From positions 1 to 64,000 of the forward strand of contig ONKF01000014.1 in NCBI GenBank assembly GCA_900318335.1: 64,000 nt of DNA, in the 5' to 3' direction. The DNA comes from an uncultured Prevotellaceae bacterium (lineage in GTDB: Bacteria > Bacteroidota > Bacteroidia > Bacteroidales > Muribaculaceae). The translations under genes and the position numbers were made by a program. Below the pieces are notes generated by a model that was given only the letters and a program-made list of their open reading frames with translations, made no database searches and had not been told where the DNA came from. Below, piece after piece: positions 3,895 through 23,157 of this stretch (its first letter is position 1; the number at the start of each line of letters is the position of its first letter).

Positions 3895-5460
3895 TTACTC
3901 TTCAAGGCCGAAGCAGGCCTTGATGGCGCGGCGGATGGCACGGGCATTCTCGCTGCCACCCTTGAGGATGTTGAGCACGCCACGGATGTAGTCGTCCTTG
4001 CTCTTGAAGCCGCACAGTGTGGCCACCTTGCTCTCGTTAATCATGAGTTTCTGGTTATAGACCCTGAGGATGCTGGCATAGTCGTTGTTGTCCTCATACA
4101 CGTGAAACTCCCTGCACAATTGGTCGTACATACCGCGCGGGTTGATTTCGCTCACCAGTTCCACCATGTGGTTCTCGAGGGCGTTGATGCTGGTGAATTT
4201 CATGTCGATGCGCAGTTCCACGTCGTGCTTCACGCGGTGGCGCACGTGCATGAGTGCCTGCTGCTTGAGCTCGCGGGTAAACATGGCGATGACATGCTTC
4301 TTGACCTTGGGAAAGACGATATCCTCGTTGCGGTGCTTGTGGCGGGCAACGGCACGGATCACGCCTTCGAGCATCAGGATGTTCTCAATCTCGGCGACAT
4401 TAGGCACGAGGATATTCTTCTTACGCAGGTATTCCACCTCCTCCTCGCTGCGGCGGTCGCGGTCCACGATACCACGGCTGTCCAGCTGGTGGAAGTTCTG
4501 CAGGTCGTTAAACGAGCGCACTGTCTCGATGACCTTGTTGCAGCTGCCTAGGGGCTTAACGGTGTACTCGGGGAAGATGAGCGGGTAGAGCCTGGAGTCA
4601 ATGCTGTGCTTGTCGTCTCCCTCGATAAACAGGACGGGCTTGCGGCTGCCCAGCAGGTCGAGTAGGGCAGAGTCAAGGTCTCGGCTGCTGGTCATAACCT
4701 CATAGTCCCACGCGACAGCCTCGGGGTCAAATTCCTTGACCCACACGCACTGGTTGTCGATGCGTGAGCTGGCAAACCCTACGTCATGGGTGTTGTAGAT
4801 GAAGGTGCAGTCGGGGCGCATCTGCTCCAGCACGTTCCACAGTGTGCGCATGATGCTACTGTGGATAAAGGTCTCAGGATCATCGACCAGGATGGCGGCA
4901 TCAGGCATGGCATAGAGTACCGCTCCGATGTAGTAGAGCACCGACTTCTCACCGTCGCTCAGGCGCATCAGCGGGTATTTGTCCTCATATCCCTCGCTGG
5001 TGAACATCAGCTTGCCGTTCTCGCGCAGCACCTTGTTCTTGGGGAACACTTCCTGCCATTTCTTGACGGTGATGTCGAGCTTGGTCTTGGGAAACTCAAT
5101 CTGCTCATCCATGAGCTGGTGGGCCTTGAAGTTCATCAGTTCACGGAATTCCTCATTCAGCATGACATAGAACAACTTGTCAAACTCTGTCTCGGCAAGG
5201 TTCTTGACCTGAGGGTTGGCTGCGTTCATGCGGTTGAACAGGTCCTCGATGGAACCTGGCAACGTCTTGGCGCTGGCAGGGCTGGGGAAGAGGGCCTTGA
5301 GGGCCGAGATGCGGTATGCCTTGTCGCCCAAATTATCAACAAGCGCCGAGCAGAAGAGGCTCTTACCAGAACCATTGGCGCCGATAATCGTGATCTGTTT
5401 TGACTCGAGCAGCACCTCGGGCTGCTTGCCATCTATTCTTTTTGGTAGTTTGATGTCCAT
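3895..5460 (-). CDS. ABC/SMC-type AAA ATPase fused to a DUF4435 (TOPRIM-like) domain
   Basis: The 521-residue protein has two parts. The N-terminal ATPase shows Walker A GANGSGKS (27-34), an ABC-like signature LSDGEKS (167-173), Walker B ILVDDPE (189-195) and an H-loop NTHD (223-226). The C-terminal part begins with PVLFIEGDD (275-283), followed by GIVDRDRR (330-337) and an E-I-E-N segment. This is the acidic residue pattern of DUF4435, a TOPRIM-like nuclease domain of the OLD superfamily. In the PARIS anti-phage system the same two activities are AriA (ATPase) and AriB (DUF4435), sometimes fused. This protein is shorter than I would expect for that fusion, and its neighbours are not defence genes, so a PARIS-like or a housekeeping OLD-like role are both open. 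Confidence 0.8.
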   Translation of the reverse strand: MDIKLPKRIDGKQPEVLLESKQITIIGANGSGKSLFCSALVDNLGDKAYRISALKALFPSPASAKTLPGSIEDLFNRMNAANPQVKNLAETEFDKLFYVMLNEEFRELMNFKAHQLMDEQIEFPKTKLDITVKKWQEVFPKNKVLRENGKLMFTSEGYEDKYPLMRLSDGEKSVLYYIGAVLYAMPDAAILVDDPETFIHSSIMRTLWNVLEQMRPDCTFIYNTHDVGFASSRIDNQCVWVKEFDPEAVAWDYEVMTSSRDLDSALLDLLGSRKPVLFIEGDDKHSIDSRLYPLIFPEYTVKPLGSCNKVIETVRSFNDLQNFHQLDSRGIVDRDRRSEEEVEYLRKKNILVPNVAEIENILMLEGVIRAVARHKHRNEDIVFPKVKKHVIAMFTRELKQQALMHVRHRVKHDVELRIDMKFTSINALENHMVELVSEINPRGMYDQLCREFHVYEDNNDYASILRVYNQKLMINESKVATLCGFKSKDDYIRGVLNILKGGSENARAIRRAIKACFGLEE

Positions 5461-5593
5461 GTCCTTAACCCCGTTTTGTTTAGGGCACGTAAAATTAACC
5501 TTTTATTTTCATCGTACCAAGGATTTGGTCCTCAAAGTGCCGAAAATGGCTTTTTTTCACATTTTTGTCATGCGCTCTATCCCGTTTTATTAG

Positions 5594-5601
5594 TAATTTT
5601 G
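5594..5601 (+). promoter_or_regulatory. -7 promoter box, apparently leaderless
   Basis: TAATTTTG ends only 8 nt before the ATG at 5610. With a usual Bacteroidetes start point about 5-8 nt past the box, the mRNA would begin at or next to the start codon. No good TTTG lies at the normal -33 distance. Its position argues against the longer reading frame that opens upstream at 5565. Confidence 0.5.
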
Positions 5602-5609
5602 CCGCTGTT

Positions 5610-6851
5610 ATGATGGATTATGTCAACGCATTTGTGTCGATGCTAAACGGCATGTCGCCCTATCTGCTGTTAGGTTTCTTTATCGCGGGACTGCTTCACG
5701 CGTTTGTGCCGTCATCGATCTACAGCCGCTATTTAGCGGGAACGGGTCTGCGCTCGGTGGCTACAGCGGCGGCCTTTGGCATCCCGTTGCCGTTGTGCTC
5801 ATGTGGCGTGTTGCCTACAGCGGTGGCTCTGCGCCGCAGTGGCGCCTCTCGTGCCGCCTCGACGGCGTTTCTCATCGCCACGCCCCAGACGGGCGTCGAT
5901 AGCATTGCGGCAACCTATTCGATGATGGGGCTGCCGTTTGCCATCCTGCGTCCTGTGGCGGCGTTGGTGACCTCGTTGATTGGGGGACTGGCTGTCGGCC
6001 ATTGGGAGCGCAAGGGGGCCCTCGGCGACGTGCATGAGGAGGCCAACTATGAGTTCAGTGAGTTGCCCAAGGGCTTGTGGAACAAGATGGTTGAGACCTT
6101 CAAGTATGGATTCTTTGATATGATGCAGAGCATCGGACGATGGCTGCTGATAGGCCTCGTGGTAGCCACGCTCATCACTGTGCTGCTACCCGACGATTTC
6201 TTCTCGACCTATGCCCGCTGGCCCCTGTTGAATATGTTTATCATCGTTCTGGTGGCGGTGCCCATGTATGTGTGTGCCACGGGATCTATTCCCATTGCTG
6301 CGGCCCTCATGCTCAAGGGAATGTCGCCAGGCTGCGCCCTGGTGTTGCTCATGGCTGGTCCTGCTGCCAACATGGCATCGATGTTTGTCGTGAACAGCGC
6401 TTTCGGCCGCAAGGCGACCATCGTTTATCTGCTTTCGATTATCGGAGGGGCGGTAGGCTTCGGTGTGTTGGTTGACTATCTGCCAGGCTTGCGTGGGATG
6501 TTCATGGACGCTTTGCCTTGCCACACCATGCACCACCACATGGGCGCCTCATGGCTCAACACCGTCTGCAGCATTGCCCTGCTTGGCATGATAATTGTGT
6601 CACTGGGAGCAAAATATTGGAAATCTTATCAAATCAAGCAAAATAAAACCACAACAATGAAAGAGTACAAAGTAAAAGGTATGATGTGTGTGCACTGCAA
6701 GGCTAATGTCGAGAAAGGCCTTGCTGCTCTTCCTGGTGTCGAAAAAGTGACTGTTGACCTCGCCAAGGGTACCGCATTGGTCGAGGGTAGTGTCCCCGAT
6801 CAGCTCGTTATCGATTGTATCGAGGATCTGGGTTACCAGTATGTGCCTTAA
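5610..6851 (+). CDS. SO_0444/YraQ-type metal permease with fused C-terminal HMA domain
   Basis: The first 345 or so residues form a polytopic permease with the family motif GIPLPLCSCGVLP and a repeat-like C-A-T-G-S-I-P-I-A-A-A segment in the second half, as in SO_0444-type Cu/Zn efflux permeases. A histidine-rich loop (HTMHHHMG) precedes the last helix. From about residue 350 a heavy-metal-associated domain follows, with the M-x-C-x-x-C motif GMMCVHCKANVEK and a full beta-alpha-beta length of about 65 residues. The permease probably exports Cu, Zn or a related metal, with the HMA delivering or sensing the ion. I chose the start at 5610 (or 5613) because the promoter box lies at 5594-5601. Confidence 0.88.
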   Translation: MMDYVNAFVSMLNGMSPYLLLGFFIAGLLHAFVPSSIYSRYLAGTGLRSVATAAAFGIPLPLCSCGVLPTAVALRRSGASRAASTAFLIATPQTGVDSIAATYSMMGLPFAILRPVAALVTSLIGGLAVGHWERKGALGDVHEEANYEFSELPKGLWNKMVETFKYGFFDMMQSIGRWLLIGLVVATLITVLLPDDFFSTYARWPLLNMFIIVLVAVPMYVCATGSIPIAAALMLKGMSPGCALVLLMAGPAANMASMFVVNSAFGRKATIVYLLSIIGGAVGFGVLVDYLPGLRGMFMDALPCHTMHHHMGASWLNTVCSIALLGMIIVSLGAKYWKSYQIKQNKTTTMKEYKVKGMMCVHCKANVEKGLAALPGVEKVTVDLAKGTALVEGSVPDQLVIDCIEDLGYQYVP

Positions 6852-6891
6852 GGAGTCAGGAATTCCCGCTTTCTAACACCACACCTAACGC

Positions 6892-7644
6892 CTATTTAAC
6901 GGCCGTGTAAATGGTGCAGACGCCCAGCGTGAGGCGTTTGTACAGGGTCTTGCGCAGCCCTGCGTTCCGCATCAGTTGCAGCATGTCGTCACCCTGGGGG
7001 ACGGCCGCGATGCTCTGGGGCAAGTAGCGGTAAGCGGTCTTGTCGCCGCTCTTGAGGGAACCTACCCAGGGAATGATGTGCATCGAGTATAGGTCATAGA
7101 ACCAGCGTATCAACGGATTGGTGGGCGTGGACAACTCCAGCACGCACAACATGCCACCAGGCTTGAGCACACGCGCCATCTCTTGATACCCCTGCTGCAG
7201 ATGCTCGAAATTGCGCACCCCGAAGGCCACAGTTACCGCATCAAACGTTTCGTCCTGCATGGGTAGCGCCATGCAGTCTCCTTGCTCAAATGTGATGATG
7301 CTTTCCAGCCCTTTTTCCTTAACCTTACGGCAGGCTTCGTCAAGCATCCCCTGTGAGAGGTCAATGCCCGTGATGTGCTGCGGTTGCAGGGACTCGTTCA
7401 ACTGGATGGCAAAATCGCCCGTGCCTGTCGCCACATCCAGGATGCGGGAGGGGCGCAATCGTTTCAACCGCTTGACGGCGAGTTTTCTCCACCAGATGTC
7501 GATGCCCAGGGTCATGGCACGGTTCATGAAGTCATAGGCGGGGGCGATGCTGTCAAACATCTGTTTCACCTGTTCGGTCTTGGCCGTGTCGTGAGTGCCG
7601 TAAGGGGTCACTTGCTCAACCCTGTTGCCCTTGTCCTCGCTCAT
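6892..7644 (-). CDS. ubiE: Demethylmenaquinone methyltransferase
   Basis: This 250-residue class I SAM methyltransferase has the UbiE/MenG pattern: FDSIAPAYDFMNR..LGIDIWWRK near the N-terminus, the SAM-binding ILDVATGTGDFAI (68-80), and VTVAFGVRNFEHLQQG. It carries out the last C-methylation of menaquinone synthesis, using SAM, and the length is normal for the family. Its start overlaps the end of phoH by 4 nt (ATGA), so the two are probably translated from one message. Confidence 0.95.
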   Translation of the reverse strand: MSEDKGNRVEQVTPYGTHDTAKTEQVKQMFDSIAPAYDFMNRAMTLGIDIWWRKLAVKRLKRLRPSRILDVATGTGDFAIQLNESLQPQHITGIDLSQGMLDEACRKVKEKGLESIITFEQGDCMALPMQDETFDAVTVAFGVRNFEHLQQGYQEMARVLKPGGMLCVLELSTPTNPLIRWFYDLYSMHIIPWVGSLKSGDKTAYRYLPQSIAAVPQGDDMLQLMRNAGLRKTLYKRLTLGVCTIYTAVK

Positions 7645-8651
7645 GCCTGCTGATCGTTGTCGGGTTGCTTGTAGTCGTCACGGCCCTCGCGGCGTTCGGC
7701 GTTATAGAGCTTGTTTTCCTCCTGGAAACGCTCGTAGGCCTCGACAATGCGCTGCACCAGTTGGTGGCGCACAATGTCCTTTTTCTCAAATTCCACCTTG
7801 CCTATGCCCTTTACTCCGTCCAGCACGCGCAGGGCGTGAATCAGGCCACTGGTGACGCTGCGGGGCAAGTCAATCTGGGTCGTGTCGCCCGTGACAATCA
7901 TTTTGGAGCCCATACCTAATCGGGTGAGGAACATCTTGATTTGGTGGGTAGTGGTGTTCTGGGCCTCATCGAGCACGATGATGGCGTCATTGAGGGTGCG
8001 TCCGCGCATGAATGCCAGTGGCGCGATCTGAATGACGTTGTTCTCCATGTATTCCTTGAGTTTGGCCTGTGGTATCATGTCCTCGAGCGCGTCATATAGT
8101 GGCTGCAGGTAGGGGTCAATCTTGTCCTTCATGTCACCAGGCAGGAAACCCAGTTTCTCGCCGGCTTCGACGGCGGGGCGGGAAAGAATGATTTTGCGTA
8201 TCTCGCGGTTCTTCAACGCGCGCACGGCCAGCGCTACAGCAAGGTAGGTCTTACCCGTGCCGGCAGGACCCAAAGCGAATGTCAAGTCATTGTGCATGAA
8301 TGTCTTGACCAGCAGCTGCTGATTGGGCGTACGGCCGCTGATGGGCTTGCCGTTCACGCCATAGACGATGACGTCGTCCATCTTCAACTGCTTGGGTGGT
8401 GTTCCCTTGATGGTGTCGATTATGACATCCTCGGGCAGGGTGTTATAGGTGGCGCAGTAGTCGGCAAGAGCATGGATTTTTTGCTCAAACTCGGCCGTGT
8501 CGCTGTCGTCTCCGATAACGGTAATGACGCTGCCCCGAGCTGCCATGCGCAGTTTGGGAAACAGGTTGCGTATAAGTTGAATGTTACTGTTATTTACCCC
8601 GTAGAAGGTCACGGGATCCACGTTGTCGATGATAATGTGCCGTTCAATCAT
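7641..8651 (-). CDS. phoH: PhoH family protein (P-loop NTPase)
   Basis: The 336-residue protein has the PhoH/YbeZ core: Walker A GPAGTGKT (128-135), the family motif ILSRPAVEAGEKLGFLPGD, and Walker B with VLDEAQN. PhoH proteins are cytoplasmic ATPases related to helicases and linked to RNA metabolism; the exact role is not settled. The N-terminal 110 residues form the small KH-like region usual in bacterial PhoH. It is the first gene of a pair with ubiE. Confidence 0.95.
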   Translation of the reverse strand: MIERHIIIDNVDPVTFYGVNNSNIQLIRNLFPKLRMAARGSVITVIGDDSDTAEFEQKIHALADYCATYNTLPEDVIIDTIKGTPPKQLKMDDVIVYGVNGKPISGRTPNQQLLVKTFMHNDLTFALGPAGTGKTYLAVALAVRALKNREIRKIILSRPAVEAGEKLGFLPGDMKDKIDPYLQPLYDALEDMIPQAKLKEYMENNVIQIAPLAFMRGRTLNDAIIVLDEAQNTTTHQIKMFLTRLGMGSKMIVTGDTTQIDLPRSVTSGLIHALRVLDGVKGIGKVEFEKKDIVRHQLVQRIVEAYERFQEENKLYNAERREGRDDYKQPDNDQQA

Positions 8652-8676
8652 TCAATATCCTTAATGAAATCTACCA

Positions 8677-8707
8677 CAAAATTACATAATATATTTGTCC
8701 CCACAAT
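8677..8707 (-). promoter_or_regulatory. Promoter of phoH-ubiE
   Basis: On the minus strand TAATTTTG (8677-8684) is preceded, 19 nt upstream, by ATTG at 8704-8707, one base from the -33 consensus TTTG. The ATG of phoH follows about 25 nt downstream of the box. The divergent gap 8652-8949 holds this and the plus-strand box at 8911-8918; no other feature was seen. Confidence 0.5.
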
Positions 8708-8910
8708 AACTGCCGCCACATTTTATCACATTTTGAATAAAACATGGCGGCAATTAAGACGGATTAGTTACGATAATTGTATCGATGCCAAGTTGATCAT
8801 TATTTTCAATGACTTTTCCATGTCCCGTGTTTTTTATGGATGATTCCTGTTGTGGCTTATTCTTTTGTGATAAGAGTTAATTAAATGTAACACATGTATG
8901 GATTTTTTAT

Positions 8911-8918
8911 TATCTTTG
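8911..8918 (+). promoter_or_regulatory. -7 box for the RsmI-like gene
   Basis: TATCTTTG lies 31 nt upstream of the ATG at 8950. No clear -33 TTTG is visible at the usual distance. Confidence 0.45.
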
Positions 8919-8949
8919 CATTTAATTTGAATTATAGCTGCCATTATTT

Positions 8950-9669
8950 ATGGAAATCGAGGTCGGTTTATACTTGATTCCCTGCCAGTTGAGCGATGGA
9001 CCGCTGGATGGGGTGCTGCCTGCACGCAACGTGGAAGTTGTGCGCGGTCTGCGGCATTTTGTCGTCGAGAGCTTGCGCTCGGCACGGCGTTTCATCAAGA
9101 AGTGTGACCGCAACATCGATATCGATAGCCTTACCCTCAACGAGCTCAACGAACACACTGACCTTAAGGACACAGCCGCCATCGAGGCGTTGCTGGACCC
9201 CATCGGCCGTGGCGAGTCGGTTGGCGTCATCAGCGACGCGGGCTGCCCTGCTGTTGCCGACCCGGGCGCCGACTTGGTAGCCATCGCTCAGCGTCGTGGC
9301 TACAAGGTGTTCCCGCTGGTGGGACCGTCAAGCATCCTGTTGAGCCTGATGGCATCGGGCTTCAATGGGCAGCGGTTCGCCTTCGAGGGCTATCTGCCTG
9401 TTGACAGTCAGGCCCGCCAGGCCCGACTCAAGGAGATGATCCGACGCATCGACCGTGAGCGCCAGACCCAAATTTTTATCGAGGCGCCCTACCGTAACAA
9501 CCAGCTTATTGCCGACCTGGCCAGCCACATGCCGCCGCGAATGCGCCTATGTGTGGCCAGCGACATCACTGGCGAGAATCAGAGCATCATCACCCGCACG
9601 ATCGAGGAGTGGAAACGGGCCAAGTATGATTACCACAAGATACCTACCATCTTCCTGTTGTTCCAATAA
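8950..9669 (+). CDS. Tetrapyrrole methylase family SAM-dependent methyltransferase (RsmI-like)
   Basis: This 239-residue protein has RsmI-type motifs: GLYLIPCQL at the N-terminus, a D-L-K-D segment, SDAGCPAVADPGADLVAIA, and PLVGPSSILLSLMASGFNGQ. RsmI 2'-O-methylates C1402 of 16S rRNA. Bacteroidetes often carry a second, shorter relative, and this one (about 240 aa, against about 280 usual for RsmI) looks like that form. The C-terminal RsmI extension is missing, so an rRNA role is inferred, not shown. It is followed 15 nt later by the metallo-beta-lactamase gene. Confidence 0.85.
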   Translation: MEIEVGLYLIPCQLSDGPLDGVLPARNVEVVRGLRHFVVESLRSARRFIKKCDRNIDIDSLTLNELNEHTDLKDTAAIEALLDPIGRGESVGVISDAGCPAVADPGADLVAIAQRRGYKVFPLVGPSSILLSLMASGFNGQRFAFEGYLPVDSQARQARLKEMIRRIDRERQTQIFIEAPYRNNQLIADLASHMPPRMRLCVASDITGENQSIITRTIEEWKRAKYDYHKIPTIFLLFQ

Positions 9670-9684
9670 ATCACACGACACGAT

Positions 9685-10716
9685 ATGCCAGGACACAAAT
9701 ATAAAGGATACACTAACGATGGTCGCCCGTTGAAGATCTCATTTGACGTGGATGGCAACGACACCCCCTCGGCCTTCGAGGAGGCCAAGGAAACACAGTC
9801 TGCCGAGCCCCGATACACGGGGGTGGGCAAGGGGTTGTGCTTCATGAGCTTCAGTAGCGGCAGCAGTGGCAACTGTGCCTATCTGGGCACCCCGCGTGGC
9901 GGTATTCTCATCGACGCTGGCATCAGGGAACCTGTTAAGTATCATCGCAAGAAGAAAAACCCCGAGCGGCAGGATATCCCCACGCTCGACCAGGCCTTTG
10001 CTGAACTTGAGCGCAATGGCATCGGCCGTGACATGATCAAGGGCGTGCTGTTGACCCATGCCCACCAGGACCACATGAGATGCCTGTATGCCGCCGTCAA
10101 CAACTGCAAGTGCAGCGTCTATTGCACGATGGGCGTAATGGCCCAGATGCTGCAACGTTGCCGCATCAGCGGACGCATCCGCGACCATCATGTCCCCATC
10201 TTCAAGGAGATACCGTTCCGCATCCTGGATATGGAGATCACCGCCTTTGAGACGATGCATGATGTGAAGAGCGTGGGTTTCAGCATCGAGTATGAGGGCG
10301 AACGCTTTGTCGTGGCGACCGATATGGGCGTCATTACCGAACGTGCGGCCCATTACATGAGCCGCGCCAACTACTTGATGATTGAGTGCAATTACGATGC
10401 CCAGATGTTGCTCACTGGCAGCTATCCACAGATGCTAAAGGACCGTGTGATGGGCGAAAAGGGCCATCTGGACAACGCGGAGGCGGCACGGTTTGTCGCC
10501 GAGCATTACCATCAGGGACTCCATCACGTGTTCCTGTGCCACTTGAGCAAGGACAACAATACCGAGGAAATTGCGCTGTCGACGATGCGAGATGCGCTTG
10601 AGTCACGCGGCCTTAGCGTCGGCGACGGCTCCAATGATGTCTCGCAGCGCGACCGTAATGTCCAGATCTACGCTTTGCCCCGTTATACCTCGTCTTCTTG
10701 GTTCGTTTTGGCCTAA
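9685..10716 (+). CDS. MBL fold metallo-hydrolase, YycJ/WalJ-like
   Basis: The 343-residue protein carries FSSGSSGNCAYL (the YycJ-type opening strand motif), ILIDAG, and the zinc motif LTHAHQDHMR (H-x-H-x-D-H). Further ligands appear in F-E-T-M-H-D and LCHLSKDNN. YycJ/WalJ proteins are zinc-dependent exonucleases thought to act in mismatch repair. A 60-residue N-terminal extension before the core is unusual. The last residues (YTSSSWFVLA) are encoded by a 27-bp tandem repeat shared with the convergent gene, and the two genes overlap by 104 nt. Confidence 0.88.
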   Translation: MPGHKYKGYTNDGRPLKISFDVDGNDTPSAFEEAKETQSAEPRYTGVGKGLCFMSFSSGSSGNCAYLGTPRGGILIDAGIREPVKYHRKKKNPERQDIPTLDQAFAELERNGIGRDMIKGVLLTHAHQDHMRCLYAAVNNCKCSVYCTMGVMAQMLQRCRISGRIRDHHVPIFKEIPFRILDMEITAFETMHDVKSVGFSIEYEGERFVVATDMGVITERAAHYMSRANYLMIECNYDAQMLLTGSYPQMLKDRVMGEKGHLDNAEAARFVAEHYHQGLHHVFLCHLSKDNNTEEIALSTMRDALESRGLSVGDGSNDVSQRDRNVQIYALPRYTSSSWFVLA

Positions 10717-20853: not shown

Positions 20854-20870
20854 TGTGTAAAAAGTACACA
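20854..20870. promoter_or_regulatory. Operator 1: TGTGT-N7-ACACA
   Basis: Palindromic site (TGTGT at 20854-20858, ACACA at 20866-20870, 7-nt spacer), 5 nt upstream of the -33 box of the Nudix regulator gene. It has the same geometry as the sites at 20909-20923 and 21743-21767. Confidence 0.75.
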
Positions 20871-20875
20871 AAAAT

Positions 20876-20906
20876 TTTGCCAGTTCAAAAATTGGCATTA
20901 TTTTTG
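20876..20906 (+). promoter_or_regulatory. Consensus promoter of the Nudix regulator gene
   Basis: A -33 TTTG (20876-20879) and a -7 TATTTTTG (20899-20906) are separated by exactly 19 nt, matching the Bacteroidetes consensus. The promoter lies between two copies of the operator. Confidence 0.75.
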
Positions 20907-20908
20907 CA

Positions 20909-20923
20909 GTGTAAAAAATACAC
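20909..20923. promoter_or_regulatory. Operator 2: GTGT-N7-ACAC over the transcription start
   Basis: GTGTAAAAAATACAC lies 2 nt downstream of the -7 box, covering the expected start of transcription. Binding here would block the promoter, suggesting autorepression by the gene product. Confidence 0.75.
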
Positions 20924-20937
20924 AAAGGACGCTCATC

Positions 20938-21669
20938 ATGAAATATAACGAGAAAACCAAGTTATGGGAATCGCCCTACTGGCACCCGGCTGTGACCACC
21001 GATGCGGTGGTGTTCGGGTTTGATGGCGAGCAGTTGAATGTACTGCTCATCCAGCGTGGCTTGGAGCCTTACAAGAACATGTGGGCTCTGCCTGGTGGTT
21101 TTATGCGTCCTGATGATGAGAGCGCACAAGCTTGCGCCTCTCGCGAGCTTCGTGAGGAGACCGATGTTTCCGATATCTACATGGAGGAAATGCAGACATT
21201 CTCTCACTGCAATCGCGACCCTCGAGAACGTGTGATCACCATTGCCTTCTTTGCTCTTGTGGCCAAGGACCAGTACCACGTCAGGGGAGGTGATGATGCG
21301 ACCAAGGCCAAATGGTTCTCCATCAAGGATCTGCCGGAATTGGCCTTTGACCACAAGGATATCGTAGCTCTGGCCCTCGAACGCCTACGGCAGCGCATCC
21401 ATTTTGAACCCATTGGATTTCACTTGCTTGGCAAGGAATTCACAATGCCCCAATTACACAATATATATAAAGCGATTTTAGACCCACCCGAGAATGACAC
21501 AAAATTAGGAGACAGAAGAAATTTTCAAAAAAAGATGCTGAATCTCGGGTACATCAGGGAGACTGGAAGAAAGGAGACAGGAAACCCTCACCGCTCTCCC
21601 AAGTTGTACACTTTTGACGAGGAAGCCTACCAGCAAGCCAAGAAGATAGGTATGCGCCTGGAATTCTGA
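20938..21669 (+). CDS. NrtR-like regulator: Nudix domain with C-terminal winged helix
   Basis: The 243-residue protein has a Nudix domain (about 15-150) with a recognisable but altered Nudix box: GGFMRPDDES...RELREETDV has one extra residue in the first loop and Asp in place of the final Gly. The last 80 residues (FTMPQLHNIYKAIL...NFQKKMLNLGYIRETG) are the winged-helix domain of NrtR-family regulators, which bind ADP-ribose or sugar derivatives and control NAD or sugar genes (AraR in Bacteroides is one). Two GTGT-N7-ACAC sites bracket its promoter and another precedes the vWA gene downstream. It is probably an autorepressor with a degenerate, ligand-sensing Nudix site. Confidence 0.9.
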   Translation: MKYNEKTKLWESPYWHPAVTTDAVVFGFDGEQLNVLLIQRGLEPYKNMWALPGGFMRPDDESAQACASRELREETDVSDIYMEEMQTFSHCNRDPRERVITIAFFALVAKDQYHVRGGDDATKAKWFSIKDLPELAFDHKDIVALALERLRQRIHFEPIGFHLLGKEFTMPQLHNIYKAILDPPENDTKLGDRRNFQKKMLNLGYIRETGRKETGNPHRSPKLYTFDEEAYQQAKKIGMRLEF

Positions 21670-21742
21670 CGCGACTGCTGGTGACGGAATCGACCTTGAT
21701 CTACCCCTGTTACAACGGGGGCTGGATACTTGACTAAAAAGC

Positions 21743-21767
21743 TCAATGTGTGAATTTTACACATTGA
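21743..21767. promoter_or_regulatory. Operator 3: extended palindrome upstream of the vWA-macro gene
   Basis: Two 9-nt arms (TCAATGTGT at 21743-21751 and ACACATTGA at 21759-21767) are perfect complements around a 7-nt spacer. The core TGTGT-N7-ACACA is identical in geometry to operators 1 and 2. It is the strongest of the sites. Confidence 0.8.
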
Positions 21768-21803
21768 ACAAGGTCAAGAATTTGTGTGCCCAATTTTGTC
21801 AAT

Positions 21804-21818
21804 ACGTAAAAAATACAA
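21804..21818. promoter_or_regulatory. Possible degenerate operator 4
   Basis: ACGTAAAAAATACAA resembles operator 2 with changes only in the outer half-sites. It lies 36 nt downstream of operator 3. In the gap 21670-21966 a -7-like TAGCTTTG (21862-21869) is also present, without a clear -33 box. Confidence 0.4.
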
Positions 21819-21966
21819 TTTGGCAAGGTTGCAGAAATAAGGATTATATTCGATTATGGTATAGCTTTGTGGCATCAATCATGACAACGACTTAGATATC
21901 ACCTGATCATGTAAGCAATGGTTTGAATTAACAATTTGGTTATTAACAGTTTATTAAATTACGATT

Positions 21967-23157
21967 ATGAAAAATCCGTTTAAGAGAAGCAACAACGAGA
22001 ATGCCCCGGCAGCAGTAACTGGCTATGTGATAAGCGAGAACGTCAATCGAGGAACTATCAGTAAGGATGCTGAGTGCCAACTTGACCCCAAGAAGGCTCA
22101 CATCTACAACCTCATTATCGTTGATGAGAGTGGCTCCATGGGTGGCTTGGAGGCAGTAACCATCAGTGGTATCAATGAAACCATCGCCACCATCAGGAAG
22201 GCGCAAAAGGACTTTGCTGACAAGCAGCAGCAGTTCCTCACGCTGGTGTGCTTTGATTCGCACCATGGTGAATTGCCTCCCATCCGCACCCACATCGATG
22301 CTATGCCCATCGACAGCGTTCAGGATTTCCATGATTACAATCCCACGGGCTGCACACCGTTGTTTGACGCGATGGGCGAGTCGATGACGACCTTGTATGC
22401 GCGCATCAAGGACGATGAGAATGCCTCTGCTGTAGTGACAGTTATCACCGACGGCTTGGAGAACGACTCCCGCAAGTGGTCTGGCCCGGCTTTGCGCAAG
22501 CTCATCGAGCGCCTCAAGGAAGAGGGCTGGACCTTCTCCTATATGGGCTCGTGCCATGATGTAGAGGAGGTGACCAGGAATTTGTCCATCGACCATGTCT
22601 TGGAGTTTGACCACGATCAAATGGGGGCAAGGAACACATGGCACCGCGACAGTTCGTCCAAGTTTGCTTATTATCAGCGCATGAGCCGTGAATTCCATGC
22701 CGATGACAGCTTGGAAGAGAAAATGGCGATCCGACGAGCCAATGCCCGCGCTTACTATGCCAACCGCATCACTCCCGATTGGATTGAAAATCTGACTGAC
22801 GCCGAGGTGTTTGTCTTCGGCAGCGACCCCCAGGGTAACCATGCTGGTGGCGCTGCTGACTATGCTGTGAAGCATTTCGGCGCCATTTATGGTCAAGCCG
22901 AGGGTATACAAGGTCAGAGCTACGCCATCCCCACCACAGGCGATTATGGCCTTTTTGTCCAGGCGGTACGCCGTTTCGTGGCCTATGCTGCCGGGCATCC
23001 CCGCACGCGCTTCTATGTCACTCGCGTGGGCTGCGGCAACGCCGGCTACGACGTCCATGAGGTGGCTCGGCTCTTTGTCGAAGCCATTAGGGTCGAGAAC
23101 ATCTGCCTGCCCGAGAGTTTCTGGGAGGTCCTTGGCCTCAAATTCTTCAAAAAATGA
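21967..23157 (+). CDS. vWA domain protein with C-terminal macro-like (A1S_2505-type) domain
   Basis: This 396-residue protein has no signal peptide, so it should be cytoplasmic. The vWA domain (about 45-230) keeps the MIDAS residues: D53-E-S-G-S57, the Thr in NPTGCTPLFDAMG, and VITDGLEND. From about 275 the sequence reads VFVFGSDPQGNHAGGAADYAVKHFGA and EGIQGQSYAIPTTGDYG, then YVTRVGCGNAGY. This is the pattern of small phage and bacterial macro-like proteins (A1S_2505 type) that I believe bind ADP-ribose-type ligands. The fusion is uncommon in my experience. The upstream NrtR-like gene and shared operators point to NAD/ADP-ribose signalling, an inference. Confidence 0.8.
   Translation: MKNPFKRSNNENAPAAVTGYVISENVNRGTISKDAECQLDPKKAHIYNLIIVDESGSMGGLEAVTISGINETIATIRKAQKDFADKQQQFLTLVCFDSHHGELPPIRTHIDAMPIDSVQDFHDYNPTGCTPLFDAMGESMTTLYARIKDDENASAVVTVITDGLENDSRKWSGPALRKLIERLKEEGWTFSYMGSCHDVEEVTRNLSIDHVLEFDHDQMGARNTWHRDSSSKFAYYQRMSREFHADDSLEEKMAIRRANARAYYANRITPDWIENLTDAEVFVFGSDPQGNHAGGAADYAVKHFGAIYGQAEGIQGQSYAIPTTGDYGLFVQAVRRFVAYAAGHPRTRFYVTRVGCGNAGYDVHEVARLFVEAIRVENICLPESFWEVLGLKFFKK

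What the first reader, a model, noticed from the sequence alone, without database searches (positions are those of the whole stretch)
20854..23157. NrtR-like Nudix regulator and vWA/macro-like fusion sharing GTGT-N7-ACAC operators
The regulator at 20938-21669 has a Nudix domain with an altered Nudix box and a C-terminal winged helix. Two palindromes flank its consensus promoter, one covering the start of transcription. A longer palindrome with the same core geometry, and a weaker one, lie upstream of the next gene. That gene joins a MIDAS-type vWA domain to a domain with FGSDPQGNHAGGAA and GQSYAIPT motifs, which I read as a macro-like, ADP-ribose-type binding module. Nudix-winged-helix proteins sense ADP-ribose or sugar derivatives, so a two-gene NAD/ADP-ribose response unit is the natural reading. 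I know of no described system with this pair.
Basis: partly seen in the sequence, partly recalled or inferred. Interest (0 to 1): 0.8.

Follow-up and report, generated by a model that had tools for sequence, protein, structure and literature searches.

The report
ADP-ribose-type regulon with a vWA-macrodomain fusion
A Nudix-type gene switch and a protein joining a metal-binding vWA domain to a predicted ADP-ribose-binding domain share the same DNA control sites, and relatives put ADP-ribose-removing enzymes under those sites, pointing to a little-known bacterial ADP-ribose response.

Summary
20938-21669 encodes an NrtR/AraR-family regulator (Nudix plus NrtR winged helix). 21967-23157 fuses a MIDAS-intact vWA domain to an 'A1S_2505' domain whose AlphaFold2 model matches macrodomains (best TARG1; BT1257 third). 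Sites of the form TGYGTA-N5-TACRCA flank the regulator's promoter and precede the fusion gene.

In 14 same-genus genomes (own included) with 81-100% identical regulators, 25 of 25 strict genome-wide operator matches lie at this locus. In 28 further genomes 49 of 58 lie at regulator or fusion genes; six of the other nine precede ADP-ribose-linked or vWA genes. Sixteen of 16 testable fusion genes unlinked to the regulator carry operators. Operator-controlled operons in relatives add ADP-ribosylglycohydrolase, NADAR, sirtuin and, in one or two operons each, PARG, KptA and a CCA-adding enzyme. In the window's own clade, sirtuin and glycohydrolase genes examined lack operators, so the unit found is two genes.

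Best reading: the regulator represses an ADP-ribose-handling regulon and is released by ADP-ribose or a relative; the vWA-macro protein binds or de-modifies ADP-ribosylated molecules. DNA binding, ligand and activity are untested. Iyer et al. 2022 predicted a related class in other phyla; this is a Bacteroidales variant.

The parts
20854..20870 (.). Operator 1, TGTGTAAAAAGTACACA, upstream of the regulator's -33 element
   Evidence: aligned in the 14-genome clade
20876..20906 (+). Bacteroidetes-type promoter: TTTG (20876-20879), 19 nt, TATTTTTG (20899-20906)
   Evidence: read from sequence; TAnnTTTG found; conserved in clade alignment; consensus recalled
20908..20924 (.). Operator 2, AGTGTAAAAAATACACA, just after the -7 box, over the likely start of transcription
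   Evidence: the one strict genome-wide match in this genome
20938..21669 (+). NrtR/AraR-family regulator: Nudix sensor domain (about residues 18-144) and C-terminal winged helix (about 160-226)
   Evidence: Pfam; NCBIfam (NF050029 134.6 bits, below its cut-off of 400); PDB; Nudix box
21747..21763 (.). Operator 3, TGTGTGAATTTTACACA, upstream of the fusion gene
21803..21819 (.). Weaker operator 4, TACGTAAAAAATACAAT, 56 bp from operator 3; stronger in several clade members
   Evidence: read; clade alignment
21862..21869 (+). TAGCTTTG, candidate -7 box of the fusion gene, about 40 bp downstream of the end of operator 4
   Evidence: similar boxes at this position in most rows of the alignment
21967..23157 (+). 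vWA-macro fusion protein, 396 aa
   Evidence: AlphaFold2 pLDDT 91.9
22096..22611 (+). vWA domain (about residues 44-215) with intact MIDAS D53-S55-S57, T130, D162
22759..23136 (+). A1S_2505 domain (about residues 265-390), predicted macrodomain fold, loops FGS(N/D)xxGxHxGGAA and IGCGxAG (VGCGNAG in this copy)
   Evidence: NCBIfam NF049995; AlphaFold2 and Foldseek; alignments

Best explanation
An ADP-ribose response unit under an NrtR-type repressor. The regulator binds tandem TGYGTA-N5-TACRCA operators as a dimer, shuts off its own promoter (sites flank the -33/-7 elements) and controls the vWA-macro gene. When ADP-ribose, or a derivative such as O-acetyl-ADP-ribose, builds up, it binds the Nudix domain and releases the DNA. 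The induced vWA-macro protein then binds or strips ADP-ribose from modified macromolecules: the macrodomain handles the ADP-ribose, and the metal-dependent vWA part holds the protein or nucleic-acid target or partner. In related species the same operator also governs glycohydrolase (ARG), NADAR, sirtuin and, less often, PARG and KptA genes, so this genome holds a reduced two-gene version of a wider regulon. Shown by comparison and prediction: domain make-up, predicted fold, operators and their conservation in cis and in trans, regulon content. Inferred: repression, the ligand, the enzyme activity and the purpose (undoing ADP-ribosylation by phage or competitor toxins, or clearing sirtuin and RNA-repair products).
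For: Domains. Macrodomain fold: A1S model pLDDT 92.9; Foldseek top hits TARG1 4j5s/4j5q (E 5e-4, TM 0.62), third BT1257 2fg1, and the 50 rows listed of 351 matches are macrodomain-type entries or designed hydrolases (for 1spv and the designs the macro fold is recalled). Operator: 25 of 25 strict genome-wide matches at this locus in 14 genomes, control pattern 5; 49 of 58 at regulator or fusion genes in 28 more, 6 of the other 9 at ADP-ribose-linked or vWA genes, control 9. Sixteen of 16 testable unlinked fusion genes keep operators. In 18 of 26 promoters examined, sites lie on both sides of a TAnnTTTG box, a repressor layout. Regulon content: PARG, CCA-adding enzyme, phosphatase and ARG (L115), NADAR (L124), PARG and KptA (L339), sirtuin in 10 of 20 further regulator loci, ARG in 11 of 36 named fusion loci. 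NrtR precedent: ADP-ribose releases MsNrtR from DNA (PMC6800001, passages).
Against: No binding or enzymatic data. The A1S profile is not significantly similar to Bacteroidales MacroD-type domains by hhalign (probability 0.3), and BT1257 is matched by sequence only at E 0.8; the macro relation rests on predicted structure. The window's copy has Asp where Asn is nearly invariant in FGSN. In its own clade ARG (11 of 11 loci from 9 genomes) and sirtuin genes (14 of 14) have no operator. G010 has a fusion gene with three operators but no detected regulator. Three of 58 strict sites precede other genes, two of them ECF-sigma-like. Eight of 26 promoters examined lack the two-sided layout, the window's fusion gene among them. 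Five of 36 named fusion loci have no site (some are cut by contig ends).
Confidence: 0.66

Rival explanations
1. An endogenous NAD-product clearing unit rather than a defence: sirtuin or RNA-repair reactions make O-acetyl-ADP-ribose or ADP-ribose-phosphate, the macro, glycohydrolase and PARG enzymes clear them, and the Nudix regulator measures the product.
For: A sirtuin gene (NAD-dependent protein deacylase/CobB models hit, below their cut-offs) follows the regulator in 10 of 20 loci; KptA (L339) and a CCA-adding enzyme (L115) sit in operator-controlled operons; 30 of 43 regulators outside the clade keep a canonical Nudix box, so they may also hydrolyse the signal.
Against: NADAR and PARG members point to adducts on macromolecules; operon content shuffles strongly between relatives, as in conflict systems; the sirtuin is outside the regulon in the window clade.
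Confidence: 0.3
2. A classical NrtR or AraR: controls NAD biosynthesis or arabinose use, with the vWA-macro gene as a bystander.
For: Closest solved homologue is AraR; both winged-helix models hit above their cut-offs. In one named locus, L143, an arabinose operon with its own NrtR/AraR-type regulator lies about 4.5 kb from a fusion gene.
Against: Strict operator matches in the 14-genome set occur only at this locus; unlinked fusion genes keep operators in 16 of 16 testable cases; in L143 the sites found lie before the DUF6717 and fusion genes, not in the arabinose cluster; I recognised no NAD-biosynthesis family among the operator-linked genes that I scanned, but one search shows only 25 of 73 families.
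Confidence: 0.06
3. A domesticated phage anti-defence cassette: the A1S and vWA domains are phage families taken up by the host with a host regulator.
For: phrog_7371 and phrog_2072 match the two halves; 80 of 80 kept viral loci carry an A1S hit (339 relatives were found, 80 kept); IMG/VR contigs L215, L218 and L243 carry vWA, A1S, short Nudix and ARG genes, L243 also a Sir2-like ORF.
Against: No phage record held the whole fusion in one place (0 of 492 matching records with 80% coverage), and the pair sits beside dnaB and other chromosomal-looking genes in the window (names recalled). Origin does not contradict the ADP-ribose role.
Confidence: 0.2

Closest known systems
ARG-centric counter-ADP-ribosylation systems (Iyer, Burroughs, Anantharaman, Aravind 2022, PMC9503650, section 3.8; author names recalled)
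   Same: Nudix-HTH repressor thought to sense ADP-ribose, vWA partner, Macro and NADAR accessories, phosphatase in some operons
   Different: [quoted passage not shown] there ARG is the core. In the window clade ARG is outside the regulon, vWA and macro are fused, and a defined operator links genes in trans
NrtR regulators of NAD metabolism (e.g. MsNrtR, PMC6800001)
   Same: Nudix sensor plus winged helix, palindromic operator, own-promoter control, ADP-ribose as anti-repressor
   Different: No NAD-biosynthesis genes found among the targets; NCBIfam equivalog score far below its cut-off (134.6 of 400)
BtAraR (PMC4666351, PDB 5bs6; passages)
   Same: Closest solved homologue; two tandem semipalindromic sites before its operon in most species
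   Different: Effector L-arabinose and ara genes; its Nudix box has lost glutamates, here REXXEE is kept
TARG1 / SCO6735 / BT1257, ALC1-like macrodomain class (PMC9411070; passages)
   Same: TARG1 and BT1257 are the best structural matches of the A1S domain; IGCGxAG loop shared with BT1257 in the weak alignment
   Different: No significant sequence similarity; the catalytic residues described for TARG1 (Lys84, Asp125) could not be mapped onto the A1S domain here

Membership tests
NrtR family regulator | Nudix-like domain plus NrtR winged helix | tested here: met
   Pfam PF00293 and PF21906 above cut-off
NrtR family regulator | Palindromic operators at its own promoter | tested here: met
   Sites present and conserved; binding itself untested
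NrtR family regulator | Impaired Nudix box | tested here: inconclusive
   Canonical box in 0 of 14 clade regulators but REXXEE in 14 of 14; canonical in 30 of 43 others
NrtR family regulator | Controls NAD biosynthesis genes | tested here: not met
   25 of 25 strict genome-wide sites in 14 genomes lie at this locus; with one mismatch allowed the scan does not discriminate
NrtR family regulator | DNA release by ADP-ribose | not testable with these tools
   needs purified protein
AraR | Regulates arabinose genes, binds L-arabinose | tested here: not met
   No arabinose genes at the strict sites followed up; the one arabinose cluster seen (L143) has its own regulator; ligand itself untested
Macrodomain superfamily | Macro fold | tested here: met
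   By predicted structure only:
Macrodomain superfamily | Sequence-profile similarity to known macrodomains | tested here: not met
   No Pfam Macro hit; hhalign probability 0.3 against MacroD-type domains; BT1257 E 0.8
Macrodomain superfamily | ADP-ribose binding or hydrolysis | not testable with these tools
   needs assay
vWA domain | MIDAS DxSxS...T...D and vWA fold | tested here: met
ARG-centric system (Iyer 2022) | ADP-ribosylglycohydrolase as operon core | tested here: not met
   In the window clade ARG is elsewhere and lacks operators; met in several relatives
ARG-centric system (Iyer 2022) | Nudix or WYL repressor, vWA, Macro or NADAR partners | tested here: met
   Macro by predicted fold
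ARG-centric system (Iyer 2022) | No coupled ADP-ribosyltransferase | tested here: inconclusive
   53 operon neighbours scanned, 25 of 73 families shown: no ART by name except KptA in L339, an ART-fold enzyme (recalled); G017 C75 has an ART-PolyVal-like ORF beside NADAR and a weak PARG hit, without operator

The most novel reading that the evidence does not exclude
A Bacteroidales-wide ADP-ribose stress regulon: one Nudix repressor family measures free ADP-ribose and, through a single operator code, switches on a mix-and-match set covering known ways of removing ADP-ribose from proteins, DNA and RNA (macro/ARH, NADAR, PARG) plus RNA-end repair (KptA, CCA enzyme), with the vWA-macro protein as a new class of metal-dependent ADP-ribose reader or eraser.
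Probability: 0.35. Interest if true: 0.82.

Novelty: new variant of a known kind. Interest (0 to 1): 0.62.

Why it matters
If right, gut and rumen Bacteroidales carry an inducible programme against ADP-ribosylation, a modification used by phages and by competitor toxins (for example the Bacteroides toxin Bxa and its ADP-ribosyl hydrolase immunity protein, PMC11699363, outline with abstract seen). It would give a likely role to A1S_2505, a domain widespread in phages; a library search for that name returned two papers, seen as a listing only, neither about this function by title or abstract start. It would extend NrtR control beyond NAD synthesis and supply an operator code with which to find the rest of the regulon in sequenced species.

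Tried and rejected
A one-mismatch genome scan for the operator in the own genome was uninformative (105 matches against 449 for the control); strict AT-spacer patterns were used instead, and these catch only one of the four window sites. Profile comparison of A1S with MacroD-type domains gave nothing significant. PADLOC gave a Nudix hit to PDC-S07 (4e-10) and a weak PDC-M10B hit (0.024). Foldseek with the full-length model showed vWA-type folds in the 50 rows listed, so the A1S domain was modelled apart. Arabinose and NAD-synthesis regulation were considered and set aside. Two loci (L124, L388) first looked like PARG carriers by tblastn; a recheck showed the match lies outside the PARG domain, and Pfam finds none in L124, so PARG is claimed for L115 and L339 only. 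An ECF-sigma target was seen in two genomes and not pursued. Literature: 9 library searches listed no title or abstract start naming a vWA-macro fusion under a Nudix regulator; figures and supplements of Iyer et al. 2022 were not available, so it may be drawn there.

Not-adjacent fusions: G028 and G068 start at contig ends and could not be tested for operators. Of 54 operon-neighbour ORFs listed, 53 were scanned (L163:7-2019 left out). NADAR was sought genome-wide in 16 of the genomes only (no match in the own genome) and ARG in the same 16.
Full report
OBSERVATION. Two genes, 20938-21669 and 21967-23157, lie in tandem on the + strand. The first is a Nudix plus NrtR-winged-helix regulator, closest in the PDB to AraR 5bs6. 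The second carries a vWA domain and, over residues 281-385, the NCBIfam domain A1S_2505 (5e-35), named there a phage non-structural protein. The two halves match separate PHROG families, 7371 and 2072.

FOLD. The full fusion was modelled from 65 aligned sequences at pLDDT 91.9; Foldseek finds integrin-I/vWA-type folds. The MIDAS residues are invariant in 20 aligned proteins. The A1S domain modelled alone (48 sequences, pLDDT 92.9) finds TARG1 first (E 5e-4, TM 0.62), BT1257 third, and macrodomain-type entries or designed hydrolases through the 50 rows shown. In PMC9411070 (passages) BT1257 shares 54% identity with SCO6735, a thymidine-ADP-ribose hydrolase. By sequence the link is weak: hhalign to MacroD-type domains probability 0.3, BT1257 at E 0.8 with IGCGiAG over IGCGLAG. 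The own genome has no match to the Pfam Macro model.

OPERATORS. The palindrome is TGYGTA-N5-TACRCA. In L031-L060 the commonest spacing between neighbouring sites is 56 bp (17 of 37 pairs under 80 bp). In a 14-genome clade (own included; regulators 81-100% identical) the upstream sites and the promoter between them are conserved, site 2 better than site 1. Strict matches genome-wide: 25 of 25 at this locus in those 14 genomes, against 5 for the reversed control pattern. In 28 further genomes, 49 of 58 lie at regulator or fusion genes; six others precede an A1S-PARG operon, ARG genes (two), A1S-DUF1810 fusions (two) and a truncated vWA gene; three precede other genes, two of these ECF-sigma-like; control 9. 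In 18 of 26 promoters examined one operator begins 45-49 bp before TAnnTTTG and another 6-9 bp after its start, a repressor layout; several unlinked fusion genes have a third site between. The other eight, the window's fusion gene among them, have no site pair around such a box: there the two sites lie upstream of the nearest TAnnTTTG.

PAIRING. Of 150 genomes, 99 have some match to the fusion protein and 41 a match reaching into both domains. In 23 of the 41 a regulator lies in the same gene cluster. Of the 18 others, 16 have upstream sequence and all 16 carry operators. One of them, G010, has no detected regulator, a result against a strict pairing. Among 36 named Bacteroidales fusion loci, 25 have the regulator within 6 kb (26 by tblastn; L143 is not counted because its regulator lies beside arabinose isomerase and kinase genes), 31 have a site scoring 11 or more somewhere in the locus, and 11 have an ARG gene; some loci are cut by contig ends.

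REGULON. Operons behind such sites in relatives: NADAR-NrtR-A1S (L124), NADAR-NrtR-A1S-PARG-KptA (L339), A1S::PARG-CCA enzyme-phosphatase-ARG (L115), NrtR-ARG-vWA::A1S (L132), NrtR-vWA::A1S-ARG (L122), NrtR-ARG::A1S (L125), NrtR-sirtuin-A1S-ARG (L379, L392). The A1S gene of L124 shares a C-terminal part with that of L115, but not the PARG domain. Of 20 further regulator loci picked from the list (L375-L394), 18 have at least one sirtuin, ARG, A1S or NADAR gene nearby (misses L385, L391), 10 have the sirtuin, and 19 have an operator scoring 10 or more (miss L387). In the window's own clade the ARG genes (11 of 11 loci from 9 of the 14 genomes, L325-L335) and the sirtuin genes (14 of 14) have no operator, so there the regulon found is regulator plus fusion, with a DUF6717-type ORF between them in 7 of 14 genomes (Pfam run on two of the seven).

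MECHANISM. The layout fits a repressor. NrtR precedent (ADP-ribose releases MsNrtR from DNA, PMC6800001, passages) and regulon content make ADP-ribose or a derivative the likeliest ligand. The Nudix box is canonical in 30 of 43 regulators outside the clade and in 0 of 14 within it, so the ancestral regulator may also have hydrolysed its signal; MsNrtR, in which no such activity was detected, also ends its box in Asp instead of Gly. NADAR removes ADP-ribose from guanosine in RNA and PARG from RNA 2'-OH, and macrodomain- and ARH-like enzymes act on phosphate ends (PMC11833690, abstract, outline headings and passages seen). Members of all these superfamilies occur behind this operator across relatives, counting A1S as macro by predicted fold. 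This favours a broad de-ADP-ribosylation programme; the sirtuin and KptA members keep an endogenous clearing role open.

KNOWN. Iyer et al. 2022 (sections 3.4.1 and 3.8 read whole, other passages seen) predicted ARG-centric systems with Nudix regulators and vWA, Macro and NADAR partners in other phyla, as defence against viral ADP-ribosylation. The present locus is a variant: fused vWA-macro, A1S macrodomain, operator code in cis and trans, Bacteroidales. Hence 'new variant of a known kind'.

Noticed in passing
L129:447-1091 (G066:C8) and L131:1970-2638 (G077:C262): ORFs with sigma-70 region matches (ECF-like) sit directly behind the same operator in two genomes, so the regulon may include a sigma factor.
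   Followed up: partly
L215, L218, L243 (IMG/VR), about 4800-8650: Viral contigs with a vWA gene divergent from a 352-358 aa gene ending in an A1S domain, plus a 145-147 aa Nudix ORF too short for the winged helix and an ARG gene (Sir2-like ORF in L243): the same functional set without the regulator's DNA-binding half.
   Followed up: partly
L116:6144-7199, L117:4420-5541 (G049): A1S-type domain fused to DUF1810 (PF08837) behind the operator; DUF1810 may be another ADP-ribose-linked domain.
   Followed up: no
L124:2678-3184, L388:5000-5467, L115 about 8340-8850: A shared C-terminal domain without a Pfam match (67-69% identical), fused to or beside A1S and NADAR genes; could be another ADP-ribose-linked function.
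   Followed up: no
L042:2488-2913 and six other clade loci; also L143:4921-5361, L158:7072-7437: DUF6717 genes recur next to the regulator or the fusion gene; function unknown, likely regulon member.
   Followed up: partly
L335 (G017:C75) about 5900-10100: ARG, NADAR, an ART-PolyVal-like ORF and a weak PARG hit clustered without operators, possibly a separate writer-eraser module.
   Followed up: no
window 21823-21838 and clade alignment L031-L044: A block GCAAGGTTGCAGAAAT just after operator 4 is conserved, with one or two changes in a few rows, in 13 of 14 genomes (not L043); it fits no promoter element that I know and may bind another factor.
   Followed up: no
G000:C37:11381-11872: A second Nudix protein, 51% identical to the regulator over residues 14-182, in a 195-aa open frame too short for the whole winged helix; similar hits recur across the genus.
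   Followed up: no
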